Part shown: positions 7,875 to 53,178 of the stretch, piece after piece | Numbering within the stretch: the stretch's first letter is position 1 | Layout: each line of letters opens with the position of its first letter | DNA from: Fictibacillus arsenicus | GTDB lineage: Bacteria > Bacillota > Bacilli > Bacillales > Fictibacillaceae | Assembly (NCBI RefSeq): GCF_001642935.1 | Contig: NZ_CP016761.1 | Location: 3,844,001-3,908,000, forward strand | Reading direction: 5' to 3' | Length of the DNA: 64,000 nt | The notes under the pieces: generated by a model | Told to the model about the DNA's origin: nothing | The model's input: the letters and a program-made list of their open reading frames with translations, nothing else | Databases searched by the model: none | Position numbers and translations under genes: made by a program

Positions 7875-8008
7875 GTGGTTGATTTCCGCTCCATGATACT
7901 CGCTTTCCGCGGGGCGGGCGGTGAGCCTCCTGCCGCTTTGCCCCTTTAGGCGTCTCACCTGTCCCACTCGTCCCGCAGGAGTCTCGCACCTTGCGCTCCA
8001 ATCAACTT
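7875..8008 (+). repeat. Dispersed palindromic element, copy 1 (short form)
   Basis: It begins GTGGTTGATTTCCGCTCC and ends CGCTCCAATCAACTT, so GTTGATT and AATCAAC form inverted ends. The interior holds CGCTTTCCGCGGGGCG, then GGTGAGCCTCC pairing with GGCGTCTCACC, then CCCGCAGGAGTCTCGCACC. It fills the gap between the cardiolipin synthase and uvsE genes. Both strands show short open frames, but these are by-products of the repeat. Confidence 0.85.
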
Positions 8009-8084
8009 GCACTGGGGTGTTTTTCAAAACCATTTTAAACCAAAATCTTTTAAGTTAGAGATAAAAAACATAAGGGGGCCAAAA

Positions 8085-9038
8085 ATGCTTACATCCTTTG
8101 GTTTTGTTTCGACAGCTCTCAACTTATATGAGGCCTCGCCAGCTAAAACGATGACATTTGCTACATATCAAAAAAGAGATAAAAAAGAACGGGAAGCACA
8201 GCTCCTCGCGATTACAAAAAACAATTTAGAGCGCACACTGCGTGTTCTCCATTATTGCGTGGCGCACGAATTGCCGCTATACCGGATGTCTTCTTCCATC
8301 GTTCCACTTGCTACACATCCTGATGCATCGTGGGATTTTTTAAAGAAGACAAAACAGGAATGTAAAGAGATCGAGAAAATCGTTAAGAAATATAATCTTA
8401 GAACAAGTATGCATCCAAATCAATTTACGCTTTTTACAAGCCCTCGTCCTGAAGTTACCGTAAATGCTGTGAAGGATATGCAATATCATTATGATCTTTT
8501 AAAAGGGATGGGAATTGAGGATCGGAGCTACATCAATATTCATGTTGGCGGCGCTTATGGAGATAAAGAGGCCGCATTAGAACGCTTTTATGGGAATATT
8601 AAAATGTTGCCATCAGACGTGAAAAGCCGCATGACGCTTGAGAACGACGATAAGACGTTCACGACTGAAGAAACTTTGGAAGTTTGTGTAACAGAAGGTG
8701 TTCCGCTCATGTTTGATTATCATCATTACAAAGCGAATCCTGGCGACACTCCTTTAGAAGAGCTGCTTCCCCGTTTTGTTCAGACTTGGAAAAATACAGG
8801 AAGACCGCCGAAAGTGCACCTATCTTCGCCTAAAGATGAGAAAGCATACAGGAGTCATCATGACTTTGTCAGTCTGGATTATGTACTGCCCTTCTTTAAG
8901 ATGGTGTCAGAGTTCACCGGTGAGCTGGACGTTATGATTGAGGCCAAACAAAAAGACCGCGCTGCCCTTCAGCTCATAAACGAGCTTGAAAAGGTACGCG
9001 GTTTTAAAAGAATGAGCGGCGGAACGATTCTTATGTGA
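8085..9038 (+). CDS. uvsE: UV DNA damage endonuclease UvsE
   Basis: A 317-residue metal-dependent TIM-barrel endonuclease that nicks 5' of UV photoproducts and abasic sites. The ATG at 8085 follows AAGGGGGCC; upstream in-frame codons run into the dispersed repeat. Family features are the N-terminal GFVSTALNLYEASPAK, the barrel segments SMHPNQFTLFTSP near 130 and INIHVGGAYGDKEAALERF near 170, LENDDKTFTTEETLEVC near 205 and LMFDYHHYKANPGD near 230, which carry metal-ligand His, Glu and Asp residues. Syntenic with B. subtilis ywjD. Its last 8 bp overlap the convergent hydrolase gene. Confidence 0.94.
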   Translation: MLTSFGFVSTALNLYEASPAKTMTFATYQKRDKKEREAQLLAITKNNLERTLRVLHYCVAHELPLYRMSSSIVPLATHPDASWDFLKKTKQECKEIEKIVKKYNLRTSMHPNQFTLFTSPRPEVTVNAVKDMQYHYDLLKGMGIEDRSYINIHVGGAYGDKEAALERFYGNIKMLPSDVKSRMTLENDDKTFTTEETLEVCVTEGVPLMFDYHHYKANPGDTPLEELLPRFVQTWKNTGRPPKVHLSSPKDEKAYRSHHDFVSLDYVLPFFKMVSEFTGELDVMIEAKQKDRAALQLINELEKVRGFKRMSGGTILM

Positions 9039-9804
9039 GACTTGATACAAAGCGTCTAACCTCTGAATTAAAGCTTTCAAAATGCTTAATCGGAAGCTGA
9101 TGCAAAGCTTTAGCCAGCATGACGAACTGAGCACGCTGATGGACGTTTCTTTGATACAGATTTCTGTAATAGTGCATATATTCCGCCTGGTCTCCGTAAA
9201 GAAAAAGAAGCGGAAACTGCCATTCCTTTATTTTTTCTGTACAGTTGAACGACATGCTCTCCTGATAAAAGCGCACCCACGTTGGTCGATCAGTCTGTTT
9301 ATGATAAAAGAACATCTCTTTCTTTTCGTGCTCGGTGTTAGAATGCGTATTAACAAGAATCTGATTTAAAAGGGCTGGTGTGCTTTTGGCCAGCCTTATT
9401 CCTGTTTGAAACTGCTTTTTCAGCGTAAACGTGGATACTTCCGAAAACCCACCGCTTAAAATAAGTCCTTTTGTGCGTTCAGGATATTTAATCGCAAAGG
9501 CTTGAGCAATCAACCCTCCAGAAGAGTAACCGCAAATAACGGCTTGATCGATCAGCAGATGATCGAGAAGATCTGCCACATCCTCGGCGAGATCATAAAT
9601 AGTAAAAGTCCCTTGATCCTTAACAGTAGATCTGCCATGACCCCGAAGATCAGGAAAAATGGTTTGGCAGGCTAATGAAAGACTTTTTTGATAGGCAAAC
9701 ACGAGATGACTCATGCCTGGGGGATGCAAAAAAACGATAGGTGTCCCCTCTCCAAGCTTTTCATAATAGATTTGAAACTCTGTTGTAAGTCCTGCTAAAG
9801 CCAT
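9031..9804 (-). CDS. Alpha/beta hydrolase
   Basis: A 257-residue alpha/beta-hydrolase-fold protein with no visible export signal. VFLHPPGMSH near 25 is the oxyanion-hole loop. DLRGHGRST near 52 is typical of the fold. CGYSSGG near 95 contains the nucleophile Ser in G-x-S-x-G form, the acid is likely in LFLYGDQAEY near 205, and the His is probably in KALHQLPIKHFE near 240. The substrate is unknown. The ATG at 9802-9804 follows a weak GAGGG site. It lies 7 bp downstream of the XapX gene, so both are probably one transcript, and it converges on uvsE with an 8-bp overlap. Confidence 0.85.
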   Translation of the reverse strand: MALAGLTTEFQIYYEKLGEGTPIVFLHPPGMSHLVFAYQKSLSLACQTIFPDLRGHGRSTVKDQGTFTIYDLAEDVADLLDHLLIDQAVICGYSSGGLIAQAFAIKYPERTKGLILSGGFSEVSTFTLKKQFQTGIRLAKSTPALLNQILVNTHSNTEHEKKEMFFYHKQTDRPTWVRFYQESMSFNCTEKIKEWQFPLLFLYGDQAEYMHYYRNLYQRNVHQRAQFVMLAKALHQLPIKHFESFNSEVRRFVSSLT

Positions 9805-9811
9805 AATACCC

Positions 9812-9982
9812 TCACTTCAAAAAAGTAGCAGCTACCCATCCGTATAGCTGAAATCCTAAATAAATACCGACTATCCCCATGATTCCCGGAAGAGCAGGCG
9901 GTGCTGGGATCGGCAATTTGAACATCGCAAACACAAATCCTACAACGGCACCCGTAATGATCGATAAAAGAATTAATTTCAT
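9812..9982 (-). CDS. XapX domain (DUF1427) small membrane protein
   Basis: A 56-residue protein with an ATG at 9980-9982 behind TAGGGGGTAC. The sequence, MKLILLSIITGAVVGFVFAM followed by FKLPIPAPPALPGIMGIVGI and YLGFQLYG, shows the XapX signature: a glycine-rich hydrophobic helix, a proline-rich P-x-P-x-P loop, then a second hydrophobic helix. The function of XapX proteins is not known; they are small integral membrane proteins, often next to transporters or hydrolases. It ends 7 bp before the hydrolase start. A -10-like TATTAT/TATAAA lies upstream on the minus strand near 10030. Confidence 0.85.
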   Translation of the reverse strand: MKLILLSIITGAVVGFVFAMFKLPIPAPPALPGIMGIVGIYLGFQLYGWVAATFLK

Positions 9983-10079
9983 CTATATGTACCCCCTAAT
10001 CGAATCGAGTTTACCAAATCTATCTCTTTATAATATGGCTCGATGTGCGAACAATATCCCAAATTGAATAGCACCCTTA

Positions 10080-10628
10080 TTATTTTTGAGACAGTTCATA
10101 ATGTTTTTTAATGATTCGGATTTGACCGCGGTGGCTTAGTTCGTCTTCAAAAACATGAAACCATTTAAAATAGTTATTTGAGAGCTCATCCTCCCACCAT
10201 GGTGTGGTTTCATAGAGCCATGAATCAGGAAGCTGCCTAAAGAGCTCAAGCGATTTTTCACGCGTTTTTGCCATGTCTTCTAGATAGAATTCAGCTGGAT
10301 TGCCCGAAATGATTATAGCCGCCTCGCCTAAATCCAAGGCGGGCTGAAGTGTGTCTGCATATCGTTCAATTTCTTCATCCGGCAAGTCTTTGGCCTCAGT
10401 CGTTAAATATTGATAAATCTTCTCCACCGCCACTAGGTGTGCGAGCAGCATCCCAATCGAGTTCCCTGTTCCGTTAATTCTGTAATCTAGAGCTTCGACC
10501 GATAGATCCTGAACGGCTCTTATCGTTGTTTCTCGCGTGTAGTCCATCATACTGATCAATGTTGAAAAATCTTTCGAATACCCTTCGATCTCCCCGATCA
10601 CAAACGGGCTTTTGCTTGATGTTGTCAT
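10080..10628 (-). CDS. DinB-superfamily protein
   Basis: A 182-residue four-helix-bundle protein of the DinB/YfiT-like superfamily. The ATG at 10626-10628 follows GAGGGGGAA. The family pattern is three metal-ligand histidines: NSIGMLLAHLVAVEKIY near 62 (first His), KWFHVFEDELSHRGQIRIIKKHY near 158-180 (the others). These proteins use the bundle for thiol transfer or unknown metal-dependent reactions. No neighbour suggests a substrate. It lies between the XapX-hydrolase pair and argS, separated from argS by a tandem array and the argS terminator. Confidence 0.8.
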   Translation of the reverse strand: MTTSSKSPFVIGEIEGYSKDFSTLISMMDYTRETTIRAVQDLSVEALDYRINGTGNSIGMLLAHLVAVEKIYQYLTTEAKDLPDEEIERYADTLQPALDLGEAAIIISGNPAEFYLEDMAKTREKSLELFRQLPDSWLYETTPWWEDELSNNYFKWFHVFEDELSHRGQIRIIKKHYELSQK

Positions 10629-10726
10629 AATAAATTCCCCCTCGTCTGAAAACTGCCCTATTAGAATTCAAGAAAAGAAGAGAATTTCCTTTTTCAGGAC
10701 TAAAGAGGGCAGTGAACTCTCAGAGG

Positions 10727-10856
10727 CGAGCATAAATCTCCCAGGGAGAGCATAAATCTCCCAGAGCGAGCATAAATCTCCACGAACGCGCATAAATCCC
10801 CACGAACGAGCATAAATCCCCAGGGACGAGCATAAATCCCCAGGGACGAGCATAAA
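10727..10856. repeat. Tandem array, seven units of 20 bp
   Basis: CATAAAT recurs at 10731, 10751, 10771, 10791, 10811, 10831 and 10851, exactly 20 bp apart. The unit is close to GAGCATAAATCTCCCAGGGA with substitutions that increase to one side. It lies between the argS terminator and the DinB-like gene. Any reading frame across it is low-complexity and has no ribosome site. Confidence 0.9.
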
Positions 10857-10859
10857 AAG

Positions 10860-10887
10860 AAAAAACCTGCGGGCAGACAGGTTTTTT
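10860..10887 (-). terminator. argS intrinsic terminator
   Basis: AAAAAACCTG and CAGGTTTTTT flank an 8-nt loop, 8 bp after the argS stop codon. It is symmetrical and could act on both strands. Confidence 0.85.
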
Positions 10888-10894
10888 GATCGTA

Positions 10895-12565
10895 TTACAT
10901 TCGCTCTGGAGCTTCTACTCCGATGATGTTCAACGCATTTTCAATTGTAACTTGTGTAGCTTTCATTAAAGCAAAACGCGCTTCTGATTTTGCTTTATTT
11001 TCAGCATCGAGCACACGCTCTGCGTTATAGAAGCTATGAAGAGCAGAAGCTAGCTCAAATACATAGTTCGTTACACGGTGCGTTAATAGTTTTTCAGCCG
11101 CTTCATTAATAACCGCTGGGAATTCTCCGATTTTCTTAAGAAGTTCAAACTCTTTTTCGGAATCGATCTGTGATAGATCTACATCTCCGCTATAAGAAAG
11201 TCCCATTTCCTCCCCTTGGCGAAGCATGCTGCAAACGCGGGCATGTGCGTATTGCACGTAGAACACCGGGTTCTCATTTGATTTTGATACCGCTAAGTCC
11301 ATATCAAAATCAAGATGAGTATCGTTGGAACGCATCGCGAAGAAATAACGAGTTGCGTCGATACCCACTTCTTCCATCAACTCGCGAAGTGTTACAGCTT
11401 TCCCTGTACGCTTACTCATACGAACTTTTTCTCCATTTTGGAAAAGAGAAACAAGCTGGATGATCATCACGTCAAGCTGTTCTTTTTCGTAGCCTAAAGC
11501 TTGAATCGCCGCTTTCATACGAGGAATATAACCGTGGTGGTCAGCTCCCCAAATGTTGATCAGCTTTTCAAATCCCCGATCAAACTTATCACTATGATAT
11601 GCGATATCTGGTGTTAAATAAGTGTAAGAACCGTCATTCTTGATCAGTACACGGTTTTTGTCATCACCGTAATCTGTCGTACGGAACCATGTCGCTCCTT
11701 CTTCCTCATAAACAACATCTTTTGCTTTTAACTTCTCAAGCGCAGCATCGATTTTTCCGTTTTTGTAAAGAGACGTTTCTGAGAACCAAACATCAAAATC
11801 CACGCGGAATTCAGCCAAGTCTTCTCTCAGCTTTTCTAATTCACGCTTAAGACCATATTCGCGGAAAAAGCTTACACGTTCAGCTTCATCTTTTTCAAGC
11901 CAAGAATCGCCGTATTCCGCAGCAAGATCTTTTCCGAACTCAATAATATCTGCACCGTGATAGCCATCTTCAGGCATTTCTTTATCCTTGCCAAGCGCCT
12001 GGAAGTAACGGGCTTCAATGGATGTTGCCAAATTGTTGATCTGGTTTCCTGCATCATTAATATAAAATTCGCGGGAAACATCATAGCCAGCATAATCAAG
12101 AATATTACAGATCGTGTCACCGACTGCCGCTCCACGCGCATGACCTAAGTGAAGTGTTCCTGTCGGGTTCGCTGAAACGAACTCAACCTGAACTTTCTTG
12201 CCTCCGCCAATTTCAGTGCGCCCATAATCCTTGCCTGCTTTTAAAACAGTCGGCACAAGCTCCGTTAAATAAGAATTGTCCATATAAAAGTTAATGAATC
12301 CAGGACCGGCAATCTCTACCTTCGAGATCGATGCTCGTGTTTTATCAAAATTCGCAACAAGCTCGTCCGCAATCATGCGCGGCACTTTTTTCGCAATACG
12401 CGCAAGCTGCATCGCCATGTTTGTCGCGAAATCTCCGTGTGCTTTATCTTTCGGTACTTCAAGAACCACTTCCGGCAGCTCTTCTTTTTTAGCGAGTCCT
12501 GCTTTAACTGCCGCTTCTTCAATCTCTTCTTTTAACAGGTGCTTGACCTGGTCAAGGATATTCAT
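10895..12565 (-). CDS. argS: Arginyl-tRNA synthetase
   Basis: A 556-residue class I aminoacyl-tRNA synthetase that charges tRNA-Arg in the cytoplasm. The N-terminal Add-1 domain (about 1-110) precedes the catalytic domain with [20 protein letters not shown] near 130 (the HIGH motif as HLGH) and KMSKR-like [12 protein letters not shown] near 370. The C-terminal DALR anticodon-binding domain ends in [11 protein letters not shown]. Length matches the Bacillus enzyme. The ATG at 12563-12565 overlaps the stop of the DUF1934 gene in an ATGA junction, with its ribosome site (AGGAGG) inside that gene, implying translational coupling. The same pair occurs in B. subtilis (ywiB-argS). Confidence 0.97.
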
Positions 12566-13002
12566 GCTTTTGCCTCCTGAAAATTAATCTTGATCCGATG
12601 TGTTCCTGTATGTTCACCCTGCAGAACCAGTTCGTACGCGAGTTTGAGATCCCCTGTTTGATTTTGCTGATTCCACCGGAAATTCATTTCGTGTGTGGTG
12701 GTTTCCATCCAAAGCTGGCCATAAGGGCTGTCGTACATCCCTTTTGTTGTTTGGCCGATTAAATATTTCTGTTTCATAGATACACTGCCTGAGCGGATGA
12801 TCAGAATTCCAGCGTGTGTGATTTTAATAACATTATTGACAGAACCCGCACCTTCTATCTCTTCCTTATATTGAAGATAAGTCACGTCTCCTCTTTTATA
12901 GAGCTTTCCGTCTGTCTCGGTGTAATGCTTTTCTTTTTCACCGCTAAAATGGACTTCTGAACTTATTGCAAGCGCAACAGACAATTCCGTATCTTGATCC
13001 AT
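12562..13002 (-). CDS. ywiB: DUF1934 protein (YwiB family)
   Basis: A 146-residue lipocalin-like beta-barrel protein of unknown role, always found ahead of argS in Bacilli. Typical segments are [46 protein letters not shown] and [15 protein letters not shown], alternating strands of a single barrel. The ATG at 13000-13002 has a GGAAGTG site 10 nt upstream. Coupled to argS by an ATGA overlap. It is divergent from the oxidoreductase gene across a 224-bp spacer. Confidence 0.9.
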
Positions 13003-13158
13003 GCGAACAACACTTCCTTTTTTGGTGTAACCTTGCCTTTAACTTACCTATTATAAAAGATTTCACTGCTCCCATTCAACCTTATGAGTGTACTTTAAGA
13101 AAATCATTTCATTTTAGATGTGAATTTATCCAAAAAAAAACGAAAATGAGCGTTTGTT

Positions 13159-13187
13159 TTGGCATGAGATTTGATTGCGGGTATGAT
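13159..13187 (+). promoter_or_regulatory. Sigma-A promoter of the oxidoreductase gene
   Basis: TTGGCA (13159-13164), 17 bp, TATGAT (13182-13187). Transcription would begin near 13194, about 33 nt before the ATG at 13227. Confidence 0.6.
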
Positions 13188-13226
13188 GACAACGAGAAGA
13201 TAAATGATTTTCTGAGGAGGATGTTG

Positions 13227-14240
13227 ATGAAAAACGAAAGAATTTTATTAGTGAACCGTCCAAAGGGAACACCAGAAAAAAGTGATTTCCGCTTTGAAGC
13301 AACAGCAATTCCAGAGCTTGAAAATGATCAAGTATTAGTGAAAACAATCTATCTTTCTGTAGATCCATATATGAGAGGGCGCATGAACGATACAAAATCT
13401 TATGTGCCTCCTTTTGAATTGAACGAAGTCATCTCAGGCGGTGTAGTTGGACAGGTAATCCAATCTCGTTCAAGCGAACTGGCTGAAGGCGATTTTGTAA
13501 TCGGCAACCTCGGCTGGCAAAAATACAATGCCGTAAGTGATGCTTCAGTAAGAAAGCTTGACCCTTCTATTGCACCGCTTACCACAAACCTTGGTGTACT
13601 TGGAATGACAGGCTTAACTGCTTATTTCGGCTTGCTTGATATCGGCAACCCGCAAGAAGGTGAAACCGTTGTTGTCAGCGGGGCAGCTGGAGCAGTAGGA
13701 ACAATCGTCGGCCAGATCGCTAAAATTAAAGGTACCCGAGTTGTTGGGATCGCCGGGTCTGATGAGAAGATTTCATATTTGAAAGATGGATTAGGCTTTG
13801 ATGAAGCGATCAACTATAAAACAGATGATGTTTATAAAGCGCTGAAGAATGCATGTCCAGATGGTGTGGATGTATATTTTGACAACGTTGGCGGCGAGAT
13901 TTCCGATCATGTTCTTCGCCAGATCAATAAAGGTGCGCGTATTGCCATCTGCGGACAGATCGCTCTTTATAATTTAGAAAAAATGGACGTAGGACCGCGC
14001 ATTCAAAGTCAGCTTCTGATTAACAGTGCGCTTATGAAAGGATTTATCGTGAGTGATTATGCGGCTCATTTTGAAGAGGGTGCCGTTCAGCTTGCAAAAT
14101 GGCTAAAAGAAGGCAAGCTTTCATACAGTGAGAACATTGTTGAAGGCTTCGAGAACACAGTAGATGCCTTTTTAGGACTGTTTTCTGGGGAAAACACCGG
14201 AAAACAGCTTGTAAAAGTAGCAGAGCCTGAGAATGTATAA
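13227..14240 (+). CDS. NADP-dependent oxidoreductase (MDR, YfmJ/CurA-like)
   Basis: A 337-residue medium-chain reductase of the leukotriene B4 12-hydroxydehydrogenase / curcumin reductase group, which reduces the alkenal or enone double bond with NADPH. It is zinc-free. The ATG at 13227 lies 6 nt after AGGAGG; an ATG at 13221 is too close to that site. N-terminal PKGTPEKSDFRF and SVDPYMRGRMND are family signatures. The Rossmann motif is VVSGAAGAVGTIVGQIAK near 150, followed by GIAGSDEK, and DVYFDNVGGEISD near 215. Closest B. subtilis protein by memory is YfmJ. Likely role is detoxifying reactive carbonyls. Confidence 0.9.
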   Translation: MKNERILLVNRPKGTPEKSDFRFEATAIPELENDQVLVKTIYLSVDPYMRGRMNDTKSYVPPFELNEVISGGVVGQVIQSRSSELAEGDFVIGNLGWQKYNAVSDASVRKLDPSIAPLTTNLGVLGMTGLTAYFGLLDIGNPQEGETVVVSGAAGAVGTIVGQIAKIKGTRVVGIAGSDEKISYLKDGLGFDEAINYKTDDVYKALKNACPDGVDVYFDNVGGEISDHVLRQINKGARIAICGQIALYNLEKMDVGPRIQSQLLINSALMKGFIVSDYAAHFEEGAVQLAKWLKEGKLSYSENIVEGFENTVDAFLGLFSGENTGKQLVKVAEPENV

Positions 14241-14285
14241 AATAATTAGACATAACTTTTCAGTAAATATTTAACGCGTAATAAA

Positions 14286-14315
14286 ACCAATCCTCTATGG
14301 CGGATTGGTCTTTTT
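14286..14315 (+). terminator. Intrinsic terminator after the oxidoreductase gene
   Basis: ACCAATCC (14286-14293) pairs with GGATTGGT (14302-14309), followed by CTTTTT. Confidence 0.85.
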
Positions 14316-14334
14316 ATATGAGAGAGATGAAGCA

Positions 14335-15293: not shown

Positions 15294-15299
15294 CACTAT

Positions 15300-17039: not shown

Positions 17040-17552
17040 TACGACCATTCCCCCCTTTTTACTGACATTTATCTACTCATAACTATAGCAAAAAAGACTT
17101 GAATGCATAACAAATTTCGACATTTTCTGATATTTTTCAATGAAAATGTCATACAAAACACTTATATTTCTTTAAGTTCCCATTGATTTACTTTTATTCT
17201 TTCTATATATTTATTCAATGTAGGAGGTCAGACCTCTTATTGTCTATAATCTAAAAGATTGTTGCTTTTAAATCGATTTATTCTGAGAACCTTCGTTTGC
17301 AAGTTGATTGGAGCGCAAGGTGCGAGACTCCTCGAAAATGAAAACTCACATTTTCATCGTGCGATGTATCGCTGTCGAAGCTTTCCTTGTCCTGAGGGAT
17401 TAGCGGGACAGGTGAGACCCCACAGGCATACAAAGCCGAGGAGGCTCACCGCCCGCCCCGCGGAAAGCGAGCATCCTGGTGCGGAAATCAACCACTTCTA
17501 TAGCAACAATATTACGGAAAGAAACAAATTTAAAAAGTAATGAGGGAATTTT
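17040..17552. other. Intergenic region between kinase and channel genes
   Basis: 513 bp without a gene. It holds the kinase promoter region, the palindrome GAGGTCAGACCTC at 17224-17236, a conserved CTAAAAGATTGTTGC flank box near 17251 and the long inverted copy of the dispersed element. The channel ribosome site TGAGGGAATTTT ends it. Confidence 0.7.
17302..17498 (-). repeat. Dispersed palindromic element, copy 2 (inverted, with insert)
   Basis: Reads AAGTTGATTGGAGCGCAAGG at the left and GCGGAAATCAACCACTT at the right, i.e. the element in reverse. Between GACTCCT and GGGATTAGCGGGACAGG it carries about 60 bp not found in other copies, including the small hairpin GAAAATG-AAAACTCA-CATTTTC. A reading frame that crosses it is a repeat by-product. 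Confidence 0.82.
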
Positions 17553-20788: not shown

Positions 20789-20816
20789 GTCCGTGTATTT
20801 TGCACGGGCGTTTTTT
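20789..20816 (+). terminator. Terminator of the toxin locus
   Basis: CCGTG-TATTTTG-CACGG, with flanking GTC/GGC pairs, is followed by GCGTTTTTT. Confidence 0.75.
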
Positions 20817-20823
20817 ATTGAAA

Positions 20824-20955
20824 GTGGTTGATTTCCGCTCCAGGTGCTCGCTTTCCGCGGGGCGTGCGGTGAGCCCCCTAGGCTCTTCAAGCCTGCAGGG
20901 CCTCACCTGTCCCGCTAATCCCGCAGGAGTCTCGCACCTTCCGCTCCAATCAACT
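20824..20955 (+). repeat. Dispersed palindromic element, copy 3 (short form)
   Basis: Starts GTGGTTGATTTCCGCTCC and ends CCGCTCCAATCAACT. It has the GGTGAGCCCCCT arm and its opposing GCCTCACC arm, with a GGCTCTTCAAGCC apical stem. Lies directly after the toxin terminator; the following 227 bp to the symporter gene hold nothing else recognisable except its promoter region. Confidence 0.85.
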
Positions 20956-21182
20956 ATTCAACGATGAACATTAATAAAACATCAAAAAATAACAACCTTT
21001 TGAAAGAGACTTCCTTGTGATACACCTAGTCCCCTACCTAGCTGGATAGTGCTTCCGTCCTGCTAACTCTCTAACTTGTATAAATTCCCATTCACAAAAA
21101 CGTCAAAAATTATCGAAAAATGTCGAAACGTGTATTAAACTGATTTTTGAGAATTATATAAAAACTTTCAGGGAGGAATTCT

Positions 21183-23941: not shown

Positions 23942-23983
23942 TTCTCTACCTCCTTCATCTTTTGACATTATAGCATTTATGAG

Positions 23984-24113
23984 GAGTTGATTTCCGTTTC
24001 AGGATGCTCGCTTTCCGGGGGGCGTGCGGTGAGCCTCCTCTGCGCTATGCGCCGTTAGGAGTCTCACCTGTCCCGCTAATCCCCCAGGAGTCTCGCACCT
24101 TCCACTCCAATCA
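23984..24113 (+). repeat. Dispersed palindromic element, copy 4 (degenerate)
   Basis: Starts GAGTTGATTTCCGTTTCAGG and ends CACTCCAATCA, having lost the AAC of the right end. The inner arm GGTGAGCCTCCT pairs with AGGAGTCTCACC around an apical TGCGC-TAT-GCGC stem. Lies in the spacer between two divergent genes, upstream of the pbp promoter. Confidence 0.8.
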
Positions 24114-24150
24114 TTTTTTTCAACAGGATGCTATCTAGAAAAGAACCTAC

Positions 24151-24180
24151 GTTTAAGAGAAGCCTTTTTTCACCATACTA
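24151..24180 (+). promoter_or_regulatory. Forespore (sigma-G/F-like) promoter of the PBP gene
   Basis: GTTTA (24151-24155), 18 bp, CATACTA (24174-24180). The -10 fits the sigma-G pattern CATNNTA exactly and the -35 fits 4 of 5 of GHATR. B. subtilis pbpG is expressed in the forespore under sigma-F, so a forespore promoter is expected. Confidence 0.45.
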
Positions 24181-32760: not shown

Positions 32761-32922
32761 TGTATCGTGTTACTAACTTTCAAAACAACCACTATTTTTT
32801 TCTATATCTGCTCTCATTTATATCGGCAAAAGGTGCCATAAATCCACCATTTTCTTCCCCTTTCAATATGAGTTATACTAGATAAAGCTTATAACGGAAA
32901 TGATAGTTTTATATGGCTCGAT

Positions 32923-33053
32923 GTTGATTTACGCTCCAGGATGCTCGCTTTCCGCGGGGTGTGCGGTGAGCCTCCTAGCACTCTGCACCATTAGGAGTCT
33001 CACCTGTCCCACTCATCGCGCTGGAGTCTCAAACCTTACGCTCCAATCAACTT
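32923..33053 (+). repeat. Dispersed palindromic element, copy 5 (short form)
   Basis: Starts GTTGATTTACGCTCCAGG and ends TACGCTCCAATCAACTT. The inner arm GGTGAGCCTCCT pairs with AGGAGTCTCACC around GCACTCTGCACC. The 370 bp upstream, from 32602, otherwise hold only the hairpin and repeats listed here plus A+T-rich sequence. Confidence 0.85.
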
Positions 33054-33102
33054 AACAAAGAAGCGTACTCAACTTTTATATAGATTGCAGGAGGAACAAT
33101 TC

Positions 33103-34736: not shown

Positions 34737-34753
34737 GTGGCAGTGTCTTTTTC
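34722..34753 (+). terminator. lipL terminator
   Basis: GCACTGTCAC pairs with GTGGCAGTGT and is followed by CTTTTT; the 5' arm lies inside the last codons of lipL. Confidence 0.72.
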
Positions 34754-34784
34754 AAGCGGACAACAATTCCCTTTAAATGGTAAA

Positions 34785-34830
34785 TTATGTGATGAACGAT
34801 CTTTTTTATGTGATCATGTATTTTTCCGAG
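34785..34830. repeat. Phased 21-bp repeats (TTATGTGAT family)
   Basis: TTATGTGATGAACGATCTTTT (34785-34805) is followed by TTATGTGATCATGTATTTTTC (34806-34826). The same motif forms the five-unit array at 45263-45362. Lies between lipL and pta, which converge. Confidence 0.82.
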
Positions 34831-35980: not shown

Positions 35981-36028
35981 GAAGAAGTTCTTTTATTTTG
36001 AATTTTTAAACGTCTATTATTTGAGGAT

Positions 36029-36242
36029 GTTGACTTCCGCTCCAGGTTGCTCGCTTTCCGCGGGGCGTGCGGTGAGCCTCATGACGCTATGCGTCGTTAG
36101 GAGTCTCACCTCAAGGAAGTTGGTGTGCTCCTGCGTCTGCAAGAAATCCTACCGAAGCGGGCTTCCTCGTCGCATGCCTTGCTTGAAGCTTATTCAGGTA
36201 GCTGGCACGCAGGAGTCTCGCAACCTTCCTCTCCAATCAACT
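36029..36242 (+). repeat. Dispersed palindromic element, copy 6 (long form with insert)
   Basis: Starts GTTGACTTCCGCTCCAGG and ends CTCTCCAATCAACT. After the GGTGAGCC...GTCTCACC stem (apical GACGC-TAT-GCGTC) it carries an insert of about 85-100 bp, including GCTTCCTCGTCGCATGCCTT, before rejoining the standard GCAGGAGTCTCGC end. The insert is shared with copy 8 at 47557-47760. Confidence 0.85.
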
Positions 36243-36300
36243 ATTCAAAGTAGCATACTCAAAAAAACATTTTAGATTTTAGATGTTTCTCAAAGTAATC

Positions 36301-41117: not shown

Positions 41118-41361
41118 CTATTTCACCACAACTATCTTTTTTTCTTATTCTACCAAACGGGGCACCAGAAATAAAATGACGCAGAAAAAGACAGCTCCAA
41201 ATAAGCTGCCTTTTCCGCTCCAAACCCGTGCAATAACCCTCATTAACACGCAGGCGTACGGTGATCCAGGCCGCAAGCCATGCAAGTGAATGCTAAAACT
41301 ACGAATTCCTATTCTTCTTATTTTCAGGCTGTTTTCGTATACTTTGTTGCTTTTGTAAGAG
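41118..41361. other. Spacer with a terminator-like hairpin
   Basis: AAGACAGCT (41188-41196) and AGCTGCCTT (41204-41212) form a hairpin with T-runs on the minus strand. The 150 bp to its right contain only short open frames without a ribosome site. No supported gene. Confidence 0.5.
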
Positions 41362-41490
41362 GTTAATTTCCGCTACAGGACTCGTCTTCCGCAGGGTGTG
41401 CGGTGAGCCCCCTCGTCGCCTCGCGACATTGAGTGGTCTCACCTGTCCCACTCATCCTGCAGGGGTCTCGTCCTTTCGCTCCAATTAACT
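41362..41490 (+). repeat. Dispersed palindromic element, copy 7 (GTTAATT ends)
   Basis: Starts GTTAATTTCCGCTACAGG and ends TCGCTCCAATTAACT: both inverted ends have changed together (GTTGATT to GTTAATT, AATCAAC to AATTAAC). Homology with copy 9 continues outward on both sides, about 41342-41553 against 53030-53245, including CTTTGTTGCTTTTGTAAGAG on the left and ATCTTTTAGAAAAGA on the right. Confidence 0.85.
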
Positions 41491-41604
41491 AATCAATGAA
41501 GAATTTCGATAAAATCTCTTAGTTGCACAATCTTTTAGAAAAGAGCGTATTTTTAAATAGATTTCCCCCTTTTCATTAAATTTTTTATATACCAAAAACG
41601 ATTG

Positions 41605-43323: not shown

Positions 43324-43329
43324 AGTCAT

Positions 43330-45192: not shown

Positions 45193-45230
45193 TGACACTT
45201 CTCCCGCTATATGGGGTAAGTGTTTTTTTC
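45193..45230 (+). terminator. Terminator of the FAD oxidoreductase gene
   Basis: ACACTTCTCCC-GCTATAT-GGGGTAAGTGT followed by TTTTTTC. Confidence 0.8.
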
Positions 45231-45262
45231 ACGCGTACACAAACTTCCATAAAATGGTTAAT

Positions 45263-45362
45263 TATGTGATCAATCGGCTTTTTTATGTGATAAAGAGTAT
45301 TTTTTATGTGATGCTGGCCCTTTTTTATGTGATGATCACTTATTTTTATGTGATGATGTAAT
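45263..45362. repeat. Phased tandem array, five units of exactly 21 bp (TTATGTGAT family)
   Basis: TATGTGAT begins at 45263, 45284, 45305, 45326 and 45347. The T-rich run before each motif is conserved while the other bases vary. The left edge, AAATGGTTAATTATGTGATC, resembles that of the array at 34779 (AAATGGTAAATTATGTGATG). Lies where the oxidoreductase and hydrolase genes converge. Confidence 0.92.
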
Positions 45363-45382
45363 TTTGAAACTCATCAAAAAGA

Positions 45383-46886: not shown

Positions 46887-46890
46887 ATAT

Positions 46891-46930
46891 AAAAAGCTTG
46901 AGGAATTTTATATTCTCCTCAAGCTTTTTG
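46891..46930 (+). terminator. yajQ terminator
   Basis: AAAAAGCTTGAGGA and TCCTCAAGCTTTTT pair around an 11-nt loop. The stem also encodes the last codons of the frameshifted gene on the other strand. Confidence 0.88.
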
Positions 46931-47428: not shown

Positions 47429-47556
47429 AGTATTCCTCCTAGAAATTTTTACCTTGTGTTCCAATAATACCAAAAATAAAGAGAGCTCGCACAGACAAAC
47501 ATTTATTGATGTGTCTTTAATAAAGACAGGTGCTTTTTTTACCTCTCTTCATTGAC

Positions 47557-47760
47557 AAGTTGTTTAGAGTGCAAGGTGCGAGACTCCTGCGGGATCAGCG
47601 TGCCAACAACCTGAGTATTCTTCTCGCAAGGCATGCGACGAGGAAGCACCTCCGACAGGATTTTCTTGAAGACGCATGAGCAGCACTTCATATATCTTTC
47701 GCTAAGGCTCACCGCCCGCCCCGCGGAAAGCGAGCATCCTGGAGCGGAAATCAACCACTT
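47557..47760 (-). repeat. Dispersed palindromic element, copy 8 (inverted long form)
   Basis: Right end GGAGCGGAAATCAACCACTT is well kept; the left end (AAGTTGTTTAGAGTGCAAGG) has decayed. Reading the minus strand, after CGGTGAGCC it carries an insert with GCTTCCTCGTCGCATGCCTT and TTGGCACGC in common with copy 6, replacing the usual inner stem. Confidence 0.83.
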
Positions 47761-47796
47761 CAAAAGCTACATTGTTTACGAAACAGTATTTTGATT

Positions 47797-48513
47797 TTAA
47801 GAAACTGCCTTCTTTACGCCTTCTTTAATGATTTGTTCCGATAACCTAGCCAGTCCCTTCGCCTCTTGCTGCTGCGGATAGATGGGAGGGTGAACCTCAA
47901 TATGCACGCTTGCCGGCTTTATCCAGAATCCCTGCTGCTCCATCATTTTATAAGAACCATTGATTGTAACAGGAATGATCGGCACACCCGATTTAGTCGC
48001 CAGCTTAAAACTGCCGGCTTTAAATTCGGACATGTCATCCCCTTTGCTTCTCGTCCCTTCAGGAAAAATAACTAAAGAAGTACCGTTTTGAAGCAATTGT
48101 GCACCTTCATTAATCGCTTTTACAGACTGACGCACATTTTTCCGGTCCATGAAAAGACAGTTCAGCTGCTCCATCCACGTTCCAATAAACGGCATTTTTT
48201 TCACTTCTATCTTAGATATAAAAGCTTTTGGCTTCTGAATATATCCCAACAAGAGTGGAATATCAAAATTTCCTTGATGATTACTTACAAACAGTACTGC
48301 CGTATCTTTCGGGATGTTCTCTTCCCCGCTTACCGTGATTGTTGATCCAGTCAGCTTTACTAAAGAACGCGCCCATTCTTTCGCTTTTTTATCAGCTAAT
48401 TCATCACGTTCTTGAATTCTTCCAGATTTCTGTAGATTCTTTACCCGATTTAGTGCAGGTATTAACTTAATTAATACCGTCCAAAAATAAACAAACCAAA
48501 TAATCGTCCGCAA
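47797..48513 (-). CDS. 1-acyl-sn-glycerol-3-phosphate acyltransferase (PlsC family)
   Basis: A 238-residue membrane-associated acyltransferase making phosphatidic acid. Start is a TTG at 48511-48513 with AAAGGATG upstream; no in-frame ATG fits. Residues 1-20 are hydrophobic. The HX4D motif is VLFVSNHQGNFDIPLLLG near 75, the substrate-binding motif is VIFPEGTRSKGDDM near 145, and VPIIPVTINGSYKM near 170 is motif IV. 13 bp downstream of the SLAP-domain gene, with which it is co-transcribed. B. subtilis has one plsC plus paralogues; which one this is remains open. Confidence 0.9.
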   Translation of the reverse strand: MRTIIWFVYFWTVLIKLIPALNRVKNLQKSGRIQERDELADKKAKEWARSLVKLTGSTITVSGEENIPKDTAVLFVSNHQGNFDIPLLLGYIQKPKAFISKIEVKKMPFIGTWMEQLNCLFMDRKNVRQSVKAINEGAQLLQNGTSLVIFPEGTRSKGDDMSEFKAGSFKLATKSGVPIIPVTINGSYKMMEQQGFWIKPASVHIEVHPPIYPQQQEAKGLARLSEQIIKEGVKKAVS

Positions 48514-48526
48514 AACTTCTCATCCT

Positions 48527-48901
48527 TTAACTAATTATTAACTCACCAGAATCGCCATCAAGTGGATCTATCAAACTTCCTGCTGGAAAAATAAACGTCC
48601 ACGGCATACTTGTTTCAGCAGGTATCTCTAACGTGTAAGCTGACTCAAACTCACCTATAGTCCGATTCTTCTCTTTATATACGACCTTTTTGCCTAAAAG
48701 TGACATCGGAATTTTAGAATAATTGTTTAATAAAACCGTTATTAAAAACTCTCGCTTATGATTAAATGCAGTTTTTAAAAGAACAGCTTGGTACCCTTCT
48801 TTTCCTTCAGCATGAATTCCAGAAAAAACACGCTCAATTTCATGTCTGTCTTTTTCTGCTAAAGTCCTGTCCCATGCGGATTCAAATGCTAATTTTTGCA
48901 A
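48527..48901 (-). CDS. SLAP domain-containing protein
   Basis: A 124-residue single SLAP domain (found in the accessory Sec system of Bacilli, but also as free-standing proteins). Start TTG 48899-48901 behind GGTGAGG. Typical features are LAFESAWDRTLAEKDRHEIERVF at the start, YQAVLLKTAFNHKREFLITVLLNNYSKIPMSL in the middle and SMPWTFIFPAGSL at the end. No secretion signal. No accSec genes nearby, so its partner is unknown. First gene of an operon with plsC. Confidence 0.82.
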   Translation of the reverse strand: MQKLAFESAWDRTLAEKDRHEIERVFSGIHAEGKEGYQAVLLKTAFNHKREFLITVLLNNYSKIPMSLLGKKVVYKEKNRTIGEFESAYTLEIPAETSMPWTFIFPAGSLIDPLDGDSGELIIS

Positions 48902-48942
48902 TGTACCTCACCCCTTTTGATTCATCTTATCATAATAGAAAT

Positions 48943-48991
48943 AAAAAGCTGGCTCGTAAAATCGTGTTTACCGCGATTCGAGCCAGCTTTC
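48943..48991 (-). terminator. Terminator of the lipoprotein gene
   Basis: AAAAAGCTGGCTCG and CGAGCCAGCTTTCTT pair around 22 nt; read on the minus strand it ends in TTTTTA. Confidence 0.82.
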
Positions 48992-48995
48992 TTAT

Positions 48996-49550
48996 TTATT
49001 CATAAATCGAACTCGCAGCTTTCAGCAAATTTGATTTTGCCTTCTTGCTGTCTGTCTCTTCTTCTTTCAAGTATTCCATTTTATGATACAGACCTTCCTC
49101 TTCCCATGCTAAAATCGGCAAGTCTGAACTTCCAGAAAAATAAGCTTTTATTCCGTTCTCAAGCTTAACCTTTTCGTTCGTTTTCAGTTTCTCTGCATTC
49201 GGAAGAAAGTTAGATATCCGGTAGGCTAAATAGACATTCTTGCCTTCCTGCCTCGGATAAAAAACAGAGTCGAGAAGTATATTTCTTTTTTCTCCCCAAT
49301 CCGAAATTTGAAAGGTAGATAAAGCTACTTTGAATGGCAGCTTATCAGGCAGCTCTAAAGAAAACGGAAGAGCCTTTTGTGCCTCTTCTTTTGAAACGTG
49401 ATCATAATATCTCGGGTAGGCACCTTTTACATGGTCCTGCAGTTTTAAGTTTTTGTCATTTAACGTACCCTGCGCACTGCTTGAACAGCCAGCAAGAAAG
49501 ACAATTATAACCAGATATACGAACAGCTTCTGCTTATTCAACCGCCCCAC
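48996..49550 (-). CDS. Lipoprotein, unknown function
   Basis: A 184-residue exported lipoprotein with lipobox LAGC at about 19-22 after a basic start and hydrophobic stretch. The mature part (LPFSLELPDKLPFKVALSTF, then AYRISNFLPNAEKLKTNEKV, then LYHKMEYLKEEE) shows a DUF4367-like beta/alpha pattern but no firm family. Start GTG 49548-49550, with AAGGAATGG upstream; a TTG three codons later is an alternative. 8 bp after the YunD-like gene, so probably in one operon. Confidence 0.75.
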   Translation of the reverse strand: MGRLNKQKLFVYLVIIVFLAGCSSSAQGTLNDKNLKLQDHVKGAYPRYYDHVSKEEAQKALPFSLELPDKLPFKVALSTFQISDWGEKRNILLDSVFYPRQEGKNVYLAYRISNFLPNAEKLKTNEKVKLENGIKAYFSGSSDLPILAWEEEGLYHKMEYLKEEETDSKKAKSNLLKAASSIYE

Positions 49551-49558
49551 CCATTCCT

Positions 49559-51139
49559 TTATTTTTTGGAAGATGGTACTTTGACTCTCCAGTTATTATC
49601 ACACGCTGCCTCAATTGTACCTCTTTTTAGCAGATAATTAGCCATCAGTTCCGATACATCGATTGGAATATCCTTTACAACACGCTTTCCTTTAAACATA
49701 TGGTAGTCTCCGCCACCGCCTGCACGGTAGTTATTCATTACTACTTGATACAGTGCGTTACCATCTACCTCATCACCTTTGAAGGTTAATTCAGTAATTC
49801 TTTGTCCAAATGGTTTTGATAGATCGATCGTATATCGGATTCCTTCCCACATGTCATAATTGTAATGCTGCGGCTTAGGAACAGAAAATGCCGGATTAAC
49901 AGCCACTGTACCATCTTCGTTCAATACAAAATAGGAAGCTGACCTCTCCAAAGCCTCTCTCATATCCTTGCCTGTGATCTCAACGACTTTTAACGTATTT
50001 GGATAAATATAGTTTGATACGATATCGCGCATCGTAACACGGGAAGAAAAACCTTTTGACCTATTATCAAATAATGCTGTGCTTGAAATTTCCGTGCCAG
50101 CAGCATCTATCTGCACTTTATTAATAAACTCGATCAAAGGAGTGTCTCTTAATCTCGTTTCCATCGGATCGGTTATCTCCATATCTCCCTCAATAACGCC
50201 GATCGGCTGATCTAGCCATTCCTGAGCTTTTTCTTCGTATGGAGCAATTAAATCCAGTACCACCTGATCAGGATCATAGCCTTTCGCAGAAAGAAGAGAG
50301 GATTTCTTACTGATTACTTCCCAAAACCCGCTATTATTTCTAATTGTTACTTCTACATGACCTACTGAAGTTCCTTGTGTACCTGGCTGAATAACCGATA
50401 CACCATTTATTTCGCTGTTTTCTATTAGACGGTGCTGATGACCGGTTAAAAGAACATCAATACCCTCGATCTCCATACATAGCTGGTATCCCTGATTTTC
50501 CCCTGTCAAAATTTCGGTAGGTTCGCCAGATTCTATGTCTCTTTCAAATCCTCCATGATAGGAAACGATCACAATATCTGCCTTTTCTTTTAAAAACGGA
50601 ACCCATTTTTTTGCCGATTGAACGGCATCAAGAAACGTGATGCCTTTTATATGTTCAGGGTTTTCCCAATTTGGTATGTAATGTGTCGTCAGTCCAAGCA
50701 CTGCTACCTTAAAACCGCTTCTGAATTTTTTTATTAGATAAGGCTCTCCAAATATCGGCTGGCCTGAATCCTCCCATACTATATTTGCAGATATCCATGG
50801 AAACTTCGATTCATTTACTGTCTTCTCTAAAAGTGGCAGTCCGTAGTTAAATTCATGATTTCCGATCACAGCAGCATCAAATTTAAGTTCGTTCAATAGC
50901 AACACCATGGGATTAATAGATTCTTTCCCCATCCTTGCATAATGATAGGTTAGCGGCGTTCCTTGTATGAGATCACCGTTATCAATTAACAAACAGTTAT
51001 CGTTCATTTTCATTTCCTCTTTAATAAGAGCTGCCGCCTTAGCAAGTCCCAATTCAGCTTGTTCGTTGTTTCCGTAAGTTAATGGGAGCACATTTCCATG
51101 CACGTCACTCGTTACATATATATGGATCGATTCTTCCAA
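49559..51139 (-). CDS. Bifunctional UDP-sugar hydrolase / 5'-nucleotidase (YunD-like)
   Basis: A 526-residue calcineurin-like phosphoesterase with a C-terminal 5'-nucleotidase domain. Likely start is TTG 51137-51139, 7 nt after GGAGGGAGG, giving MEESIHIYVTSDVHGN; a GTG seven codons earlier overlaps that site. Metal motifs are TSDVHGNVLP near 10, LLIDNGDLIQGTPLTY near 50, AVIGNHEFNYG near 90, SYHGGFERD near 175 and VLLTGHQHRL near 210. The C-terminal domain has NNYRAGGGGDYHMFKG near 480. No signal peptide, so it is cytoplasmic like B. subtilis YunD. Confidence 0.9.
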   Translation of the reverse strand: MEESIHIYVTSDVHGNVLPLTYGNNEQAELGLAKAAALIKEEMKMNDNCLLIDNGDLIQGTPLTYHYARMGKESINPMVLLLNELKFDAAVIGNHEFNYGLPLLEKTVNESKFPWISANIVWEDSGQPIFGEPYLIKKFRSGFKVAVLGLTTHYIPNWENPEHIKGITFLDAVQSAKKWVPFLKEKADIVIVSYHGGFERDIESGEPTEILTGENQGYQLCMEIEGIDVLLTGHQHRLIENSEINGVSVIQPGTQGTSVGHVEVTIRNNSGFWEVISKKSSLLSAKGYDPDQVVLDLIAPYEEKAQEWLDQPIGVIEGDMEITDPMETRLRDTPLIEFINKVQIDAAGTEISSTALFDNRSKGFSSRVTMRDIVSNYIYPNTLKVVEITGKDMREALERSASYFVLNEDGTVAVNPAFSVPKPQHYNYDMWEGIRYTIDLSKPFGQRITELTFKGDEVDGNALYQVVMNNYRAGGGGDYHMFKGKRVVKDIPIDVSELMANYLLKRGTIEAACDNNWRVKVPSSKK

Positions 51140-51433
51140 AGCATCGACCTCCCTCCTCACATACTAGTACTCGTATTATACTATTTAACTAAAGTTAAGG
51201 GGGAAATCGGTTTCTAATTTTTACGTATGAAAAAACCAGAGAATTCGACATTATTTCCACGGAAATAATCATTATTCTACAAAAATTCTTATCTTTCGGT
51301 TTTCCTTCAGCTCTTTTTACAAAATGAGTTTTGAAAATTCTTTAAAAATATATGAATAATTTTTACAGGAATATTCGTCTACATATCGAATACTAATAAT
51401 CTTGTTCTTTTATAGAAAAAAGGGGGCATTACC

Positions 51434-53011
51434 ATGAACGTAGATTCGAAAGTGAAAAAGAAAAAGAATCAATCGAATCGAAAAGCTTATCTTCTTCCTC
51501 TTGCAATTGTTCTGCTTTTGGTAGGATTGGTGGTTTGGAACAACATCCGCCAGGAGACTAGACTTCCAAATAAGGACTGGAGCCGATCTGTCAGTATATC
51601 GGCTGAATCCATAAGCTCAGAACCGATTGCATTTAAGGAAGACAATCAATATCATATCTACACACATCTTAAAGACGGCATTAAAGCTACCATTTTAGAT
51701 GAGAAGCTGAATGTTGTTTCAGAGAAAACTGAAAAGCTGCCAATTGATGAGAGAGGCAATTTTTGGACAGATGGCAAGCAGATCGCTTTCGTATCGCAGG
51801 GCGATCTAATCATTCAAGAAGGCGGGAAGCAAAACGTATTAGATAAAGGTGTTGAATTCTTAGCCGATACAAAGAACCGATTTGCCTATACGAAAGGGAA
51901 TGAAGTATATGCATATGAACCTGAGAGCGGTAAAAGCAAATTAATATTTTCAGCTAAAGAAAAAGTTGCAGAGTTAACAGCAAATCCAGAATCTGCGTCT
52001 TTTATTGCCGTTGTCGGTGAAAAAGTTGAAATGGAAGCATTCTATTTAACTGAAAAAAGCGGACAATATGAACCGGTCTCAATCCTTAAGTACAGCAAAA
52101 CGCCAACTGATAAGATTTATAACTTCAGATTTGCTGAAGCTGGTGATGACGTTCATATTCTTTATACGTTCTATTCATCAAAGCAAGGAACGAAATCATT
52201 TAAAACCTTTTACAGTTCAGCACCAATGAACCAATTGAAAGATTTATCATTTACGAGCGTTAATTTTAAAGATGTATCTGAAGGTTACGAGATTGAAAAT
52301 CCAACTTACCTGAATTTGAACATAGAAGACAATGCACCAACAATTCTTTTCTCTGCTAGAGGAGCAATATCTACTAAAAAAGATGCAGGTAATATCTATA
52401 GAGCTTCGTTAAAAAATGATACTTGGGAAGCAACTCGTATAAGTACGACTAACGATTTCTCAATCTACCCTGTAAAAGCAGAAGATCAAACTGTCTTCTG
52501 GTTAAAAGCTGAGTCTGTTCAGGATTATCAAGTTCACGCAGCAAGTCAGGATCCAGCAATAATGAAGAACAGTCAATCCATCAGTAAGCAGGATGTCTAC
52601 AATGCATCGTTTGACGCTTTTGCCGCTTCAATTGTTTCATTTATCGCGATGACAAATGCATTCGTTTGGATTGTACCGACCATTTTATTTTTAGGTATTC
52701 TGTATGTTGTTAGAATTGATGTGATTGAAGAAGAAAAACCGTGGGTGAAATGGGTATCGATTGCGCTCTTTGTTCTTACACAGCTCTATGTGATTCAATC
52801 CTTGTTCAATAATCGATTCTATACACTTGCACCTGAATATTTAACCTTTGACGGCAGTTCACTTGTCGTTCCAATTATCGTTTCAATCGTAGCACTCTAT
52901 GTCATGCAAGCCGTTAAAAATAAGGATTGGGGGCTTTTCGCCCAAGTTTCTTACTTTATTGGAATTACTGTATTGTTCCAGTTGTTTATTGTTGGAACGT
53001 ACGTATATTAA
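51434..53011 (+). CDS. Large membrane protein with an extracytoplasmic beta-rich domain
   Basis: A 525-residue protein of unknown function. ATG 51434 follows AAAGGGGGC. After a lysine-rich start (KKKKNQSNRK) a membrane helix lies at about 19-36 (YLLPLAIVLLLVGLVVW). Residues 45-380 are extracytoplasmic and made of repeating strands (for example GNFWTDGKQIAFVSQGDLII, and QYEPVSILKYSKTP), suggesting a beta-propeller. Four or five helices follow at about 400-525 (FIAMTNAFVWIVPTILFLGI, then WVSIALFVLTQLYVIQSLF, then VVPIIVSIVALYVM). No family was recognised. Confidence 0.8.
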   Translation: MNVDSKVKKKKNQSNRKAYLLPLAIVLLLVGLVVWNNIRQETRLPNKDWSRSVSISAESISSEPIAFKEDNQYHIYTHLKDGIKATILDEKLNVVSEKTEKLPIDERGNFWTDGKQIAFVSQGDLIIQEGGKQNVLDKGVEFLADTKNRFAYTKGNEVYAYEPESGKSKLIFSAKEKVAELTANPESASFIAVVGEKVEMEAFYLTEKSGQYEPVSILKYSKTPTDKIYNFRFAEAGDDVHILYTFYSSKQGTKSFKTFYSSAPMNQLKDLSFTSVNFKDVSEGYEIENPTYLNLNIEDNAPTILFSARGAISTKKDAGNIYRASLKNDTWEATRISTTNDFSIYPVKAEDQTVFWLKAESVQDYQVHAASQDPAIMKNSQSISKQDVYNASFDAFAASIVSFIAMTNAFVWIVPTILFLGILYVVRIDVIEEEKPWVKWVSIALFVLTQLYVIQSLFNNRFYTLAPEYLTFDGSSLVVPIIVSIVALYVMQAVKNKDWGLFAQVSYFIGITVLFQLFIVGTYVY

Positions 53012-53049
53012 AAAAGCTGTTGCGGCAAACTTTGTTGCTTTTGTAAGAG

Positions 53050-53178
53050 GTTAATTTCCGCTGCAGGACTCGCTTTCCGCAGGGTGTGCGGTGAGCCCCC
53101 TCGTAGCCTCGCGACATTGAGTGGTCTCACCTGTCCCACTCATCCTGCCGGAGTCTCGTCCTTACGCTCCAATTAACT
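53050..53178 (+). repeat. Dispersed palindromic element, copy 9 (GTTAATT ends)
   Basis: Starts GTTAATTTCCGCTGCAGG and ends ACGCTCCAATTAACT. Nearly the same as copy 7, including its flanks (about 53030-53245). Confidence 0.87.

What the first reader, a model, noticed from the sequence alone, without database searches (positions are those of the whole stretch)
7875..53178. Nine-copy family of structured intergenic elements in 45 kb
Copies at 7875-8008, 17302-17498, 20824-20955, 23984-24113, 32923-33053, 36029-36242, 41362-41490, 47557-47760 and 53050-53178 share GTTGATTTCCGCTCC at one end and CGCTCCAATCAAC at the other, with CTTTCCGCGGGGCG, GGTGAGCC...TCTCACC and GCAGGAGTCTCGC inside. Seven are in one orientation and two inverted. 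None interrupts a gene. One copy per 5-7 kb implies hundreds in the genome. No transposase gene is present, so this is MITE-like or a multiplied structured RNA/DNA element of unknown role. The short reading frames across copies are probably often mis-annotated as proteins.
Basis: partly seen in the sequence, partly recalled or inferred. Interest (0 to 1): 0.76.

Follow-up and report, generated by a model that had tools for sequence, protein, structure and literature searches.

The report
Jumping hairpin elements shared across Bacilli
Hundreds of short jumping DNA elements in this bacterium's genome carry one conserved folded hairpin, and the same hairpin sits in elements with different transposon ends in many other Bacilli, so it is probably a structured RNA or DNA module whose job is still unknown.

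Summary
The nine copies are real, but the coordinates given mark only a G+C-rich core of about 130 nt. Well-preserved copies are longer (about 220-300 bp), with A+T-rich arms and outer inverted ends like GGCTGTTTTCGTAAACTTTGTTG. The genus is Fictibacillus; 64 copies in an 800-kb sample suggest about 320 per genome. Of 67 bounded copies of this end type (several genomes), 46 show 8-bp target duplications (mis-paired control 155 of 3350), and relatives have empty sites. The ends match IS1595-family insertion sequences, not ISL3, so these are MITEs moved in trans; no such transposase was found in the window's own genome. The unusual part is the core. Its hairpin covaries (40 of 45 pairs) over some 40 genomes, and it lies between at least three kinds of transposon ends. 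It was found in 120 of 398 genomes drawn from the class and in none outside it. Outside Fictibacillus, its purine-rich strand tends to be the one co-transcribed with neighbouring genes (94 against 40 overall). I read it as a structured, probably transcribed module re-packaged by several MITEs. Mobility is well supported; selection on the fold is likely; the RNA role is inferred.

The parts
7839..8073 (+). copy W1 (core 7878-8006); outer bounds approximate
   Evidence: full-length model hit; no convincing ends or duplication
17239..17530 (-). copy W2 (core 17310-17492) with the 57-nt insert; site empty in 11 of 11 Fictibacillus relatives
17333..17389 (-). 57-nt insert module, AGGA on both sides
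20809..21018 (+). copy W3 (core 20827-20954); filled in two relatives, empty in one, eight not comparable
23958..24166 (+). copy W4 (core 23986-24115); filled in one relative, empty in ten; outer bounds approximate
32915..33073 (+). copy W5, 159-bp insert (core 32923-33051); filled in three relatives, empty in seven, one without flanks
32907..32914 (.). left target duplication TTTTATAT of W5
33074..33081 (.). right target duplication TTTTATAT of W5
36011..36294 (+). copy W6 (core 36029-36240) with the 94-nt insert at 36112-36205; outer bounds approximate
41327..41547 (+). copy W7 (core 41362-41489), type-A ends GGCTGTTTTCGTAT / CGCTCTTTTCTAAA, flanks TATTTTCA / TATTTTTA (7 of 8)
47516..47792 (-). 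copy W8 (core 47565-47755) with an insert of about 99 nt at 47606-47704; outer bounds approximate
53009..53248 (+). copy W9 (core 53050-53177)

Best explanation
The copies are MITEs: short transposons without a gene of their own, with outer inverted ends, moved in trans by IS1595-family transposases into A+T-rich sites between genes, where they make 8-bp target duplications. What defines the family is the core inside: a long hairpin with mismatched internal loops, kept over much of the class Bacilli while its stems change by paired substitutions. MITEs with different ends carry the same core. Shown: mobility, ends, duplications, conserved fold, several vehicles, range. Inferred: selection on the fold (about 0.6), the RNA strand and the role in transcripts (about 0.4). 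The stated confidence is for the MITE part together with a conserved structured core.
For: Young burst with exact ends and 8-bp duplications in G104. Duplications of at least 7 of 8 in 46 of 67 type-A copies against 155 of 3350 mis-paired. Empty sites. IS1595 element L227 with the same kind of ends and duplication AAAAGTTT; L247 has an end identical to the MITE's left end; nine of nine loci with a transposase at least 61% identical to that of L227 have A-type ends on at least one side. B-type ends: 13 of 14 with duplications, matching a second IS1595 clade, e.g. L231. Covariation: 604 double-changed cells against 115 shuffled, 40 of 45 pairs; 127 against 31 inside this genome. Strand bias with neighbouring genes 94 against 40 and 21 against 0 in one genus.
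Against: No IS1595 or ISL3 transposase domain in the window's genome and no tblastn hit in about 1.06 Mb of its sequence in hand, overlaps counted. Only one of nine window copies shows near-complete ends. In Fictibacillus there is no strand bias with genes (15 against 14) or with replication (80 of 150). In the genus with 21 against 0, at least three loci (L385, L387, L389) share the same flank and are not independent. Unpaired columns are on average not more conserved than paired ones (0.73 against 0.81). Wobble pairs do not fix the strand over many genera (98 against 111), and three positions are constant or frequent G-U pairs on the + strand only. No expression data.
Confidence: 0.75

Rival explanations
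1. Ordinary MITE with an inert core: one ancient IS1595-derived MITE whose ends diverged together with its transposase, and whose arms stay complementary through template switching between hairpin arms, without any function of the core.
For: A and B ends both go with IS1595 clades and 8-bp duplications. Orientation is random in Fictibacillus. Loops are on average not more conserved than stems.
Against: The mismatched loops persist over many genera instead of being copied into perfect pairs. Type C ends look unrelated and lack an 8-bp duplication. The inner core also sits in quite different outer stems. Strand bias in other genera.
Confidence: 0.3
2. The core acts at the DNA level, as a hairpin or cruciform that a host protein or the transposition machinery binds, and helps the element to spread.
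For: Near-palindrome that folds on both strands; the same core in several vehicles; orientation follows the replication arms in G309, 32 of 35.
Against: No replication bias in Fictibacillus (80 of 150). In G309 the bias is confounded with gene direction, and the boundaries were chosen after seeing the strands. The core was not looked for inside autonomous IS1595 elements.
Confidence: 0.2
3. MITEs moved by ISL3-family transposases.
For: 8-bp duplications and GGCT ends (recalled features of ISL3).
Against: PF01610 has no match in G000 or in any of the 17 same-genus genomes of that search. Where paired ends were found around ISL3 genes of relatives they differ (30 loci). IS1595 loci match.
Confidence: 0.03

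Closest known systems
BOX, RUP and SPRITE repeats of Streptococcus pneumoniae (PMC3049150; passages read)
   Same: Intergenic, under a few hundred bp, predicted stem-loops if transcribed, ends like those of resident insertion sequences (RUP and IS630-Spn1), modular build (BOX), ORFs on them annotated as genes.
   Different: Those are per-species families; here one structured core covers much of a class and lies between at least three kinds of ends. No sequence comparison with BOX or RUP was made.
IS1595-family insertion sequences
   Same: Ends and 8-bp duplications of two clades match MITE types A and B.
   Different: The MITEs hold no transposase gene.
bcr repeats of the Bacillus cereus group (Bcr1 seen as a row of a table in PMC2267715; otherwise recalled)
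   Same: Repeated, intergenic, folding elements of a Bacillus group.
   Different: Not compared by sequence here.
Stem-loop families Bhal-1 (B. halodurans, 74 nt) and Sta-1 (S. aureus, 105 nt) of PMC2267715 (passages read)
   Same: Intergenic stem-loop repeats of Bacilli; could be earlier sightings of this family.
Bacillaceae-1 RNA, RF01690 (PMC2864571; passages read)
   Same: Structured element of Bacillaceae by name.
   Different: No match of this or any Rfam family in the window at gathering scores or in five loci up to E = 1 that would be this element.

Membership tests
MITE | short, with terminal inverted repeats | tested here: met
   Exact ends in G104; 67 bounded type-A and 14 type-B copies; many copies of the window's genome have decayed ends.
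MITE | target-site duplication of fixed length | tested here: met
   8 bp: 46 of 67 type A (control 155 of 3350), 13 of 14 type B (no separate control); not seen for type C.
MITE | filled and empty orthologous sites | tested here: met
   W2, W3, W4, W5.
MITE | no transposase gene inside; ends shared with an autonomous element | tested here: met
   L227, L247, L191 for type A; L231 for type B. Partner of type C not sought.
MITE | moved by that transposase | not testable with these tools
   Needs a transposition assay.
ISL3-derived MITE | ends shared with an ISL3 element | tested here: not met
structured noncoding RNA | covarying secondary structure | tested here: met
   the wide alignment is fitted to the model and holds six opposite-strand re-hits.
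structured noncoding RNA | transcribed from a defined strand | tested here: inconclusive
   Only orientation bias, absent in Fictibacillus; wobble counts undecided.
known Rfam family | match at the curated score | tested here: not met

The most novel reading that the evidence does not exclude
The core is an undescribed class of structured noncoding RNA of the Bacilli, read from its purine-rich strand, that spreads as cargo of at least three kinds of MITE, in a few to some hundreds of copies per genome, and may switch between two exclusive pairings (CCUGCGGG with CCCGCGG or with CCCGCAGG).
Probability: 0.35. Interest if true: 0.85.

Novelty: new variant of a known kind. Interest (0 to 1): 0.6.

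Why it matters
If the core has a function, one of the most repeated structured sequences in many Bacilli genomes has no family entry that I could find, and its spread shows how a folded module can be multiplied and re-packaged between transposon types. If it has none, the family still explains some spurious small proteins and offers natural experiments: the same gene neighbourhood with and without the element.

Tried and rejected
ISL3 as partner: rejected. Known RNA families: none. Papers: ten searches, none of whose listings names this element; four short core strings occur in no held full text. The library holds only open-licence papers and no supplements were open to me, so Bhal-1 and Sta-1 remain possible earlier sightings. 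Phages: one 129-nt core had no match in 50,697 records. Strand from wobble pairs: in this genome's main stem my tally rows gives 43 A-C against 10 G-T cells (two constant G-T pairs left out), but over many genera it is 111 against 98 (three G-T-rich pairs left out). Replication: no bias here (80 of 150), strong in G309 (30 or 32 of 35 by the boundary used, chosen after seeing the strands) and confounded with gene direction. A strict search for paired ends and duplication around single loci found only 8 of 41 at score 19 (control 5 of 205). The call that allots ends to IS1595 loci left 6 of the 17 more distant loci without a B end within 4 mismatches.

Rows dropped: one search kept 59 of 67 cores by length, one search used 57 of them; one search kept 53 of 80 joined hits (room and two flanking ORFs needed); one search took 90 chosen loci and aligned the best 150 of 156 matches; one search dropped elements near locus ends, duplicates and those over 900 bp from an ORF; one search used 35 of 37 G309 matches (one on the second contig and one opposite-strand re-hit left out); one search counts L366, L380 and L208 on both strands.
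Full report
OBSERVATION. The nine copies are in the window at the stated places, and a family model finds no tenth. The window is bases 3,844,001-3,908,000 of a 4,055,461-base single-contig genome. A window gene found 12 loci in named genomes, 11 of them Fictibacillus at 83-96% identity and one a weak short match elsewhere. In 40 evenly spaced stretches of 20 kb I found 71 joined hits, 64 spanning at least 100 model positions, hence about 320 copies per genome.

WHAT THE UNIT IS. GTTGATT and AATCAAC are the base of an internal hairpin. Outside them lie conserved A+T-rich arms. The left outer end GGCTGTTTTCGTAAACTTTGTTGCT has 91 matches with up to 3 mismatches in this genome, and the reversed pattern none. 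Genome G104, of another family of the order, holds a young burst of near-identical copies; eleven of these with both flanks have 8-bp duplications of at least 7 of 8, such as TTAAAAAT, TTTAGCAA and TTGCATAA. Over everything in hand, 46 of 67 bounded type-A copies with a core have such duplications, against 155 of 3350 when flanks are mis-paired (three loci counted on both strands). Copies of the window's own genome are among them (L029, L030, L083, L085, L087, L096, L099, L100 with 8 of 8). Sites in Fictibacillus relatives: W2 is empty in 11 of 11; W4 is filled in one and empty in ten; W5 is filled in three and empty in seven, one lacking flanks; W3 is filled in two and empty in one, eight not comparable. 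At W5 the 8 bases TTTTATAT stand once in empty sites and twice around the insert. In the window only W7 has near-complete ends.

WHO MOVES THEM. I first thought of ISL3. Its transposase domain has no match in this genome or in the 17 other genomes of the genus searched, and ends found around ISL3 genes of relatives differ. A decayed 1.13-kb element in G104 with the right ends led to IS1595. L227 is a 1449-bp element with a 336-aa IS1595 transposase (NF033547, E = 2.4e-63), ends GGCTCTTTTCGTAAATATTGTTG / GACTGTTTTCGTATAGATTGTTG and AAAAGTTT on both sides. L247 has an end identical to the MITE's left end. Nine of nine loci with a transposase at least 61% identical to that of L227 have A-type ends on one or both sides; of 17 more distant loci, 11 have a GGCTNTGTTAAA-like (B) end within 4 mismatches on at least one side. 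L231, of the second group, has TTATTTTA on both sides, in genome G094 that also has a core between B-like ends (L130). The window's genome has no IS1595 domain match, so its copies may be stranded; two other genomes of the genus (G012, G015) have one.

ONE CORE, SEVERAL VEHICLES. In other genera the same core lies between B ends (14 copies, 13 with duplications of at least 7 of 8). In G023 and relatives it lies between GGGGCTGTCC and GGACAGCCCC without an 8-bp duplication. In G052, G058 and G069 the inner part of the core sits in quite different, still self-complementary outer stems. In Fictibacillus an insert of 57 nt (8 of 80 joined hits) and inserts of about 80-103 nt sharing a CTTCCTCGTCGCATGCC-like stretch recur inside the core. 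A and B could be one old MITE whose ends followed its transposase; type C is harder to explain so.

STRUCTURE. On 57 cores of this genome 127 cells are changed on both sides of a pair, against 31 in shuffles. That alignment was fitted to the model and six rows are opposite-strand re-hits, so the figures lean upwards. Mismatched loops persist over these genera; but unpaired columns are on average less conserved than paired ones (0.73 against 0.81), the most conserved part being the inner stem and its neighbourhood. No Rfam family matches.

RANGE. With the wider model, 120 of 398 genomes drawn from the class match, in 35 of 145 genera. Of 299 drawn from the phylum 3 match, all in the class (how many of the 299 lie outside the class is not printed, and weak forms may be lost). 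Sixteen plasmid records match, of Priestia, Peribacillus, Bacillus, Paenibacillus, Niallia, Planococcus and Sporosarcina, twice seen beside gnd in a metabolic gene cluster, once next to a Tn3 transposase. No phage record matched one core.

PLACE AND STRAND. In this genome orientation is random to genes (15 (+,+), 14 (-,-)) and to replication (80 of 150). Over all loci the purine-rich strand is more often the co-transcribed one: 94 (-,-) against 40 (+,+); without G114, G309 and the named Fictibacillus loci 67 against 34 (p = 0.0013); by genome 32 against 15 (p = 0.019, genomes not independent); convergent gaps 62, divergent 23. In the genus of G114 and G309 it is 21 against 0 of 30, though at least three loci share a flank. 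This is the best hint that the core acts, or is tolerated, as RNA from that strand. It is only a hint.

VERDICT. MITE with IS1595-like ends: about 0.9. Core kept by selection on its fold: about 0.6. Core acting as RNA from the purine-rich strand: about 0.4. No listing of ten paper searches names the family, but the library is partial and PMC2267715 (passages seen) may hold earlier sightings under species names.

Noticed in passing
window 10707-10866: Tandem array of a 20-nt unit, GAGCATAAATC(T/C)CC-like, just downstream of the ORF at 10895-12565 on the - strand.
   Followed up: no
window 34742-34825 and 45219-45365: Two places share a stretch and 21-nt TTATGTGAT repeats.
   Followed up: no
window 62036-62119: 21-nt TCCAAAA-like tandem repeat.
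   Followed up: no
window 76-713 and 1232-1869: Two neighbouring stretches 71-75% alike, 1156 bp apart, probably paralogous genes in tandem.
   Followed up: no
window 17333-17389; L031, L049, L058, L060, L061, L062, L069, L317, L323: The 57-nt insert CAAGGAAGGCTTCG..CATTTTCG with AGGA on both sides occurs at the same point of the core in Fictibacillus and in G023; it could be a second small mobile or structural module.
   Followed up: partly
L399:4001-4087 and L402:3001-3087: Plasmids of B. subtilis and Paenibacillus urinalis carry a core between gnd and a hypothetical gene in a zwf/gnd/pgi cluster, next to a Tn3 transposase in one.
   Followed up: partly
G309 chromosome: Core orientation changes with the replication arms (32 of 35), unlike Fictibacillus.
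   Followed up: partly
L401:2487-2624: Hypothetical protein WP_205664564.1 annotated across a core on a Priestia megaterium plasmid.
   Followed up: yes
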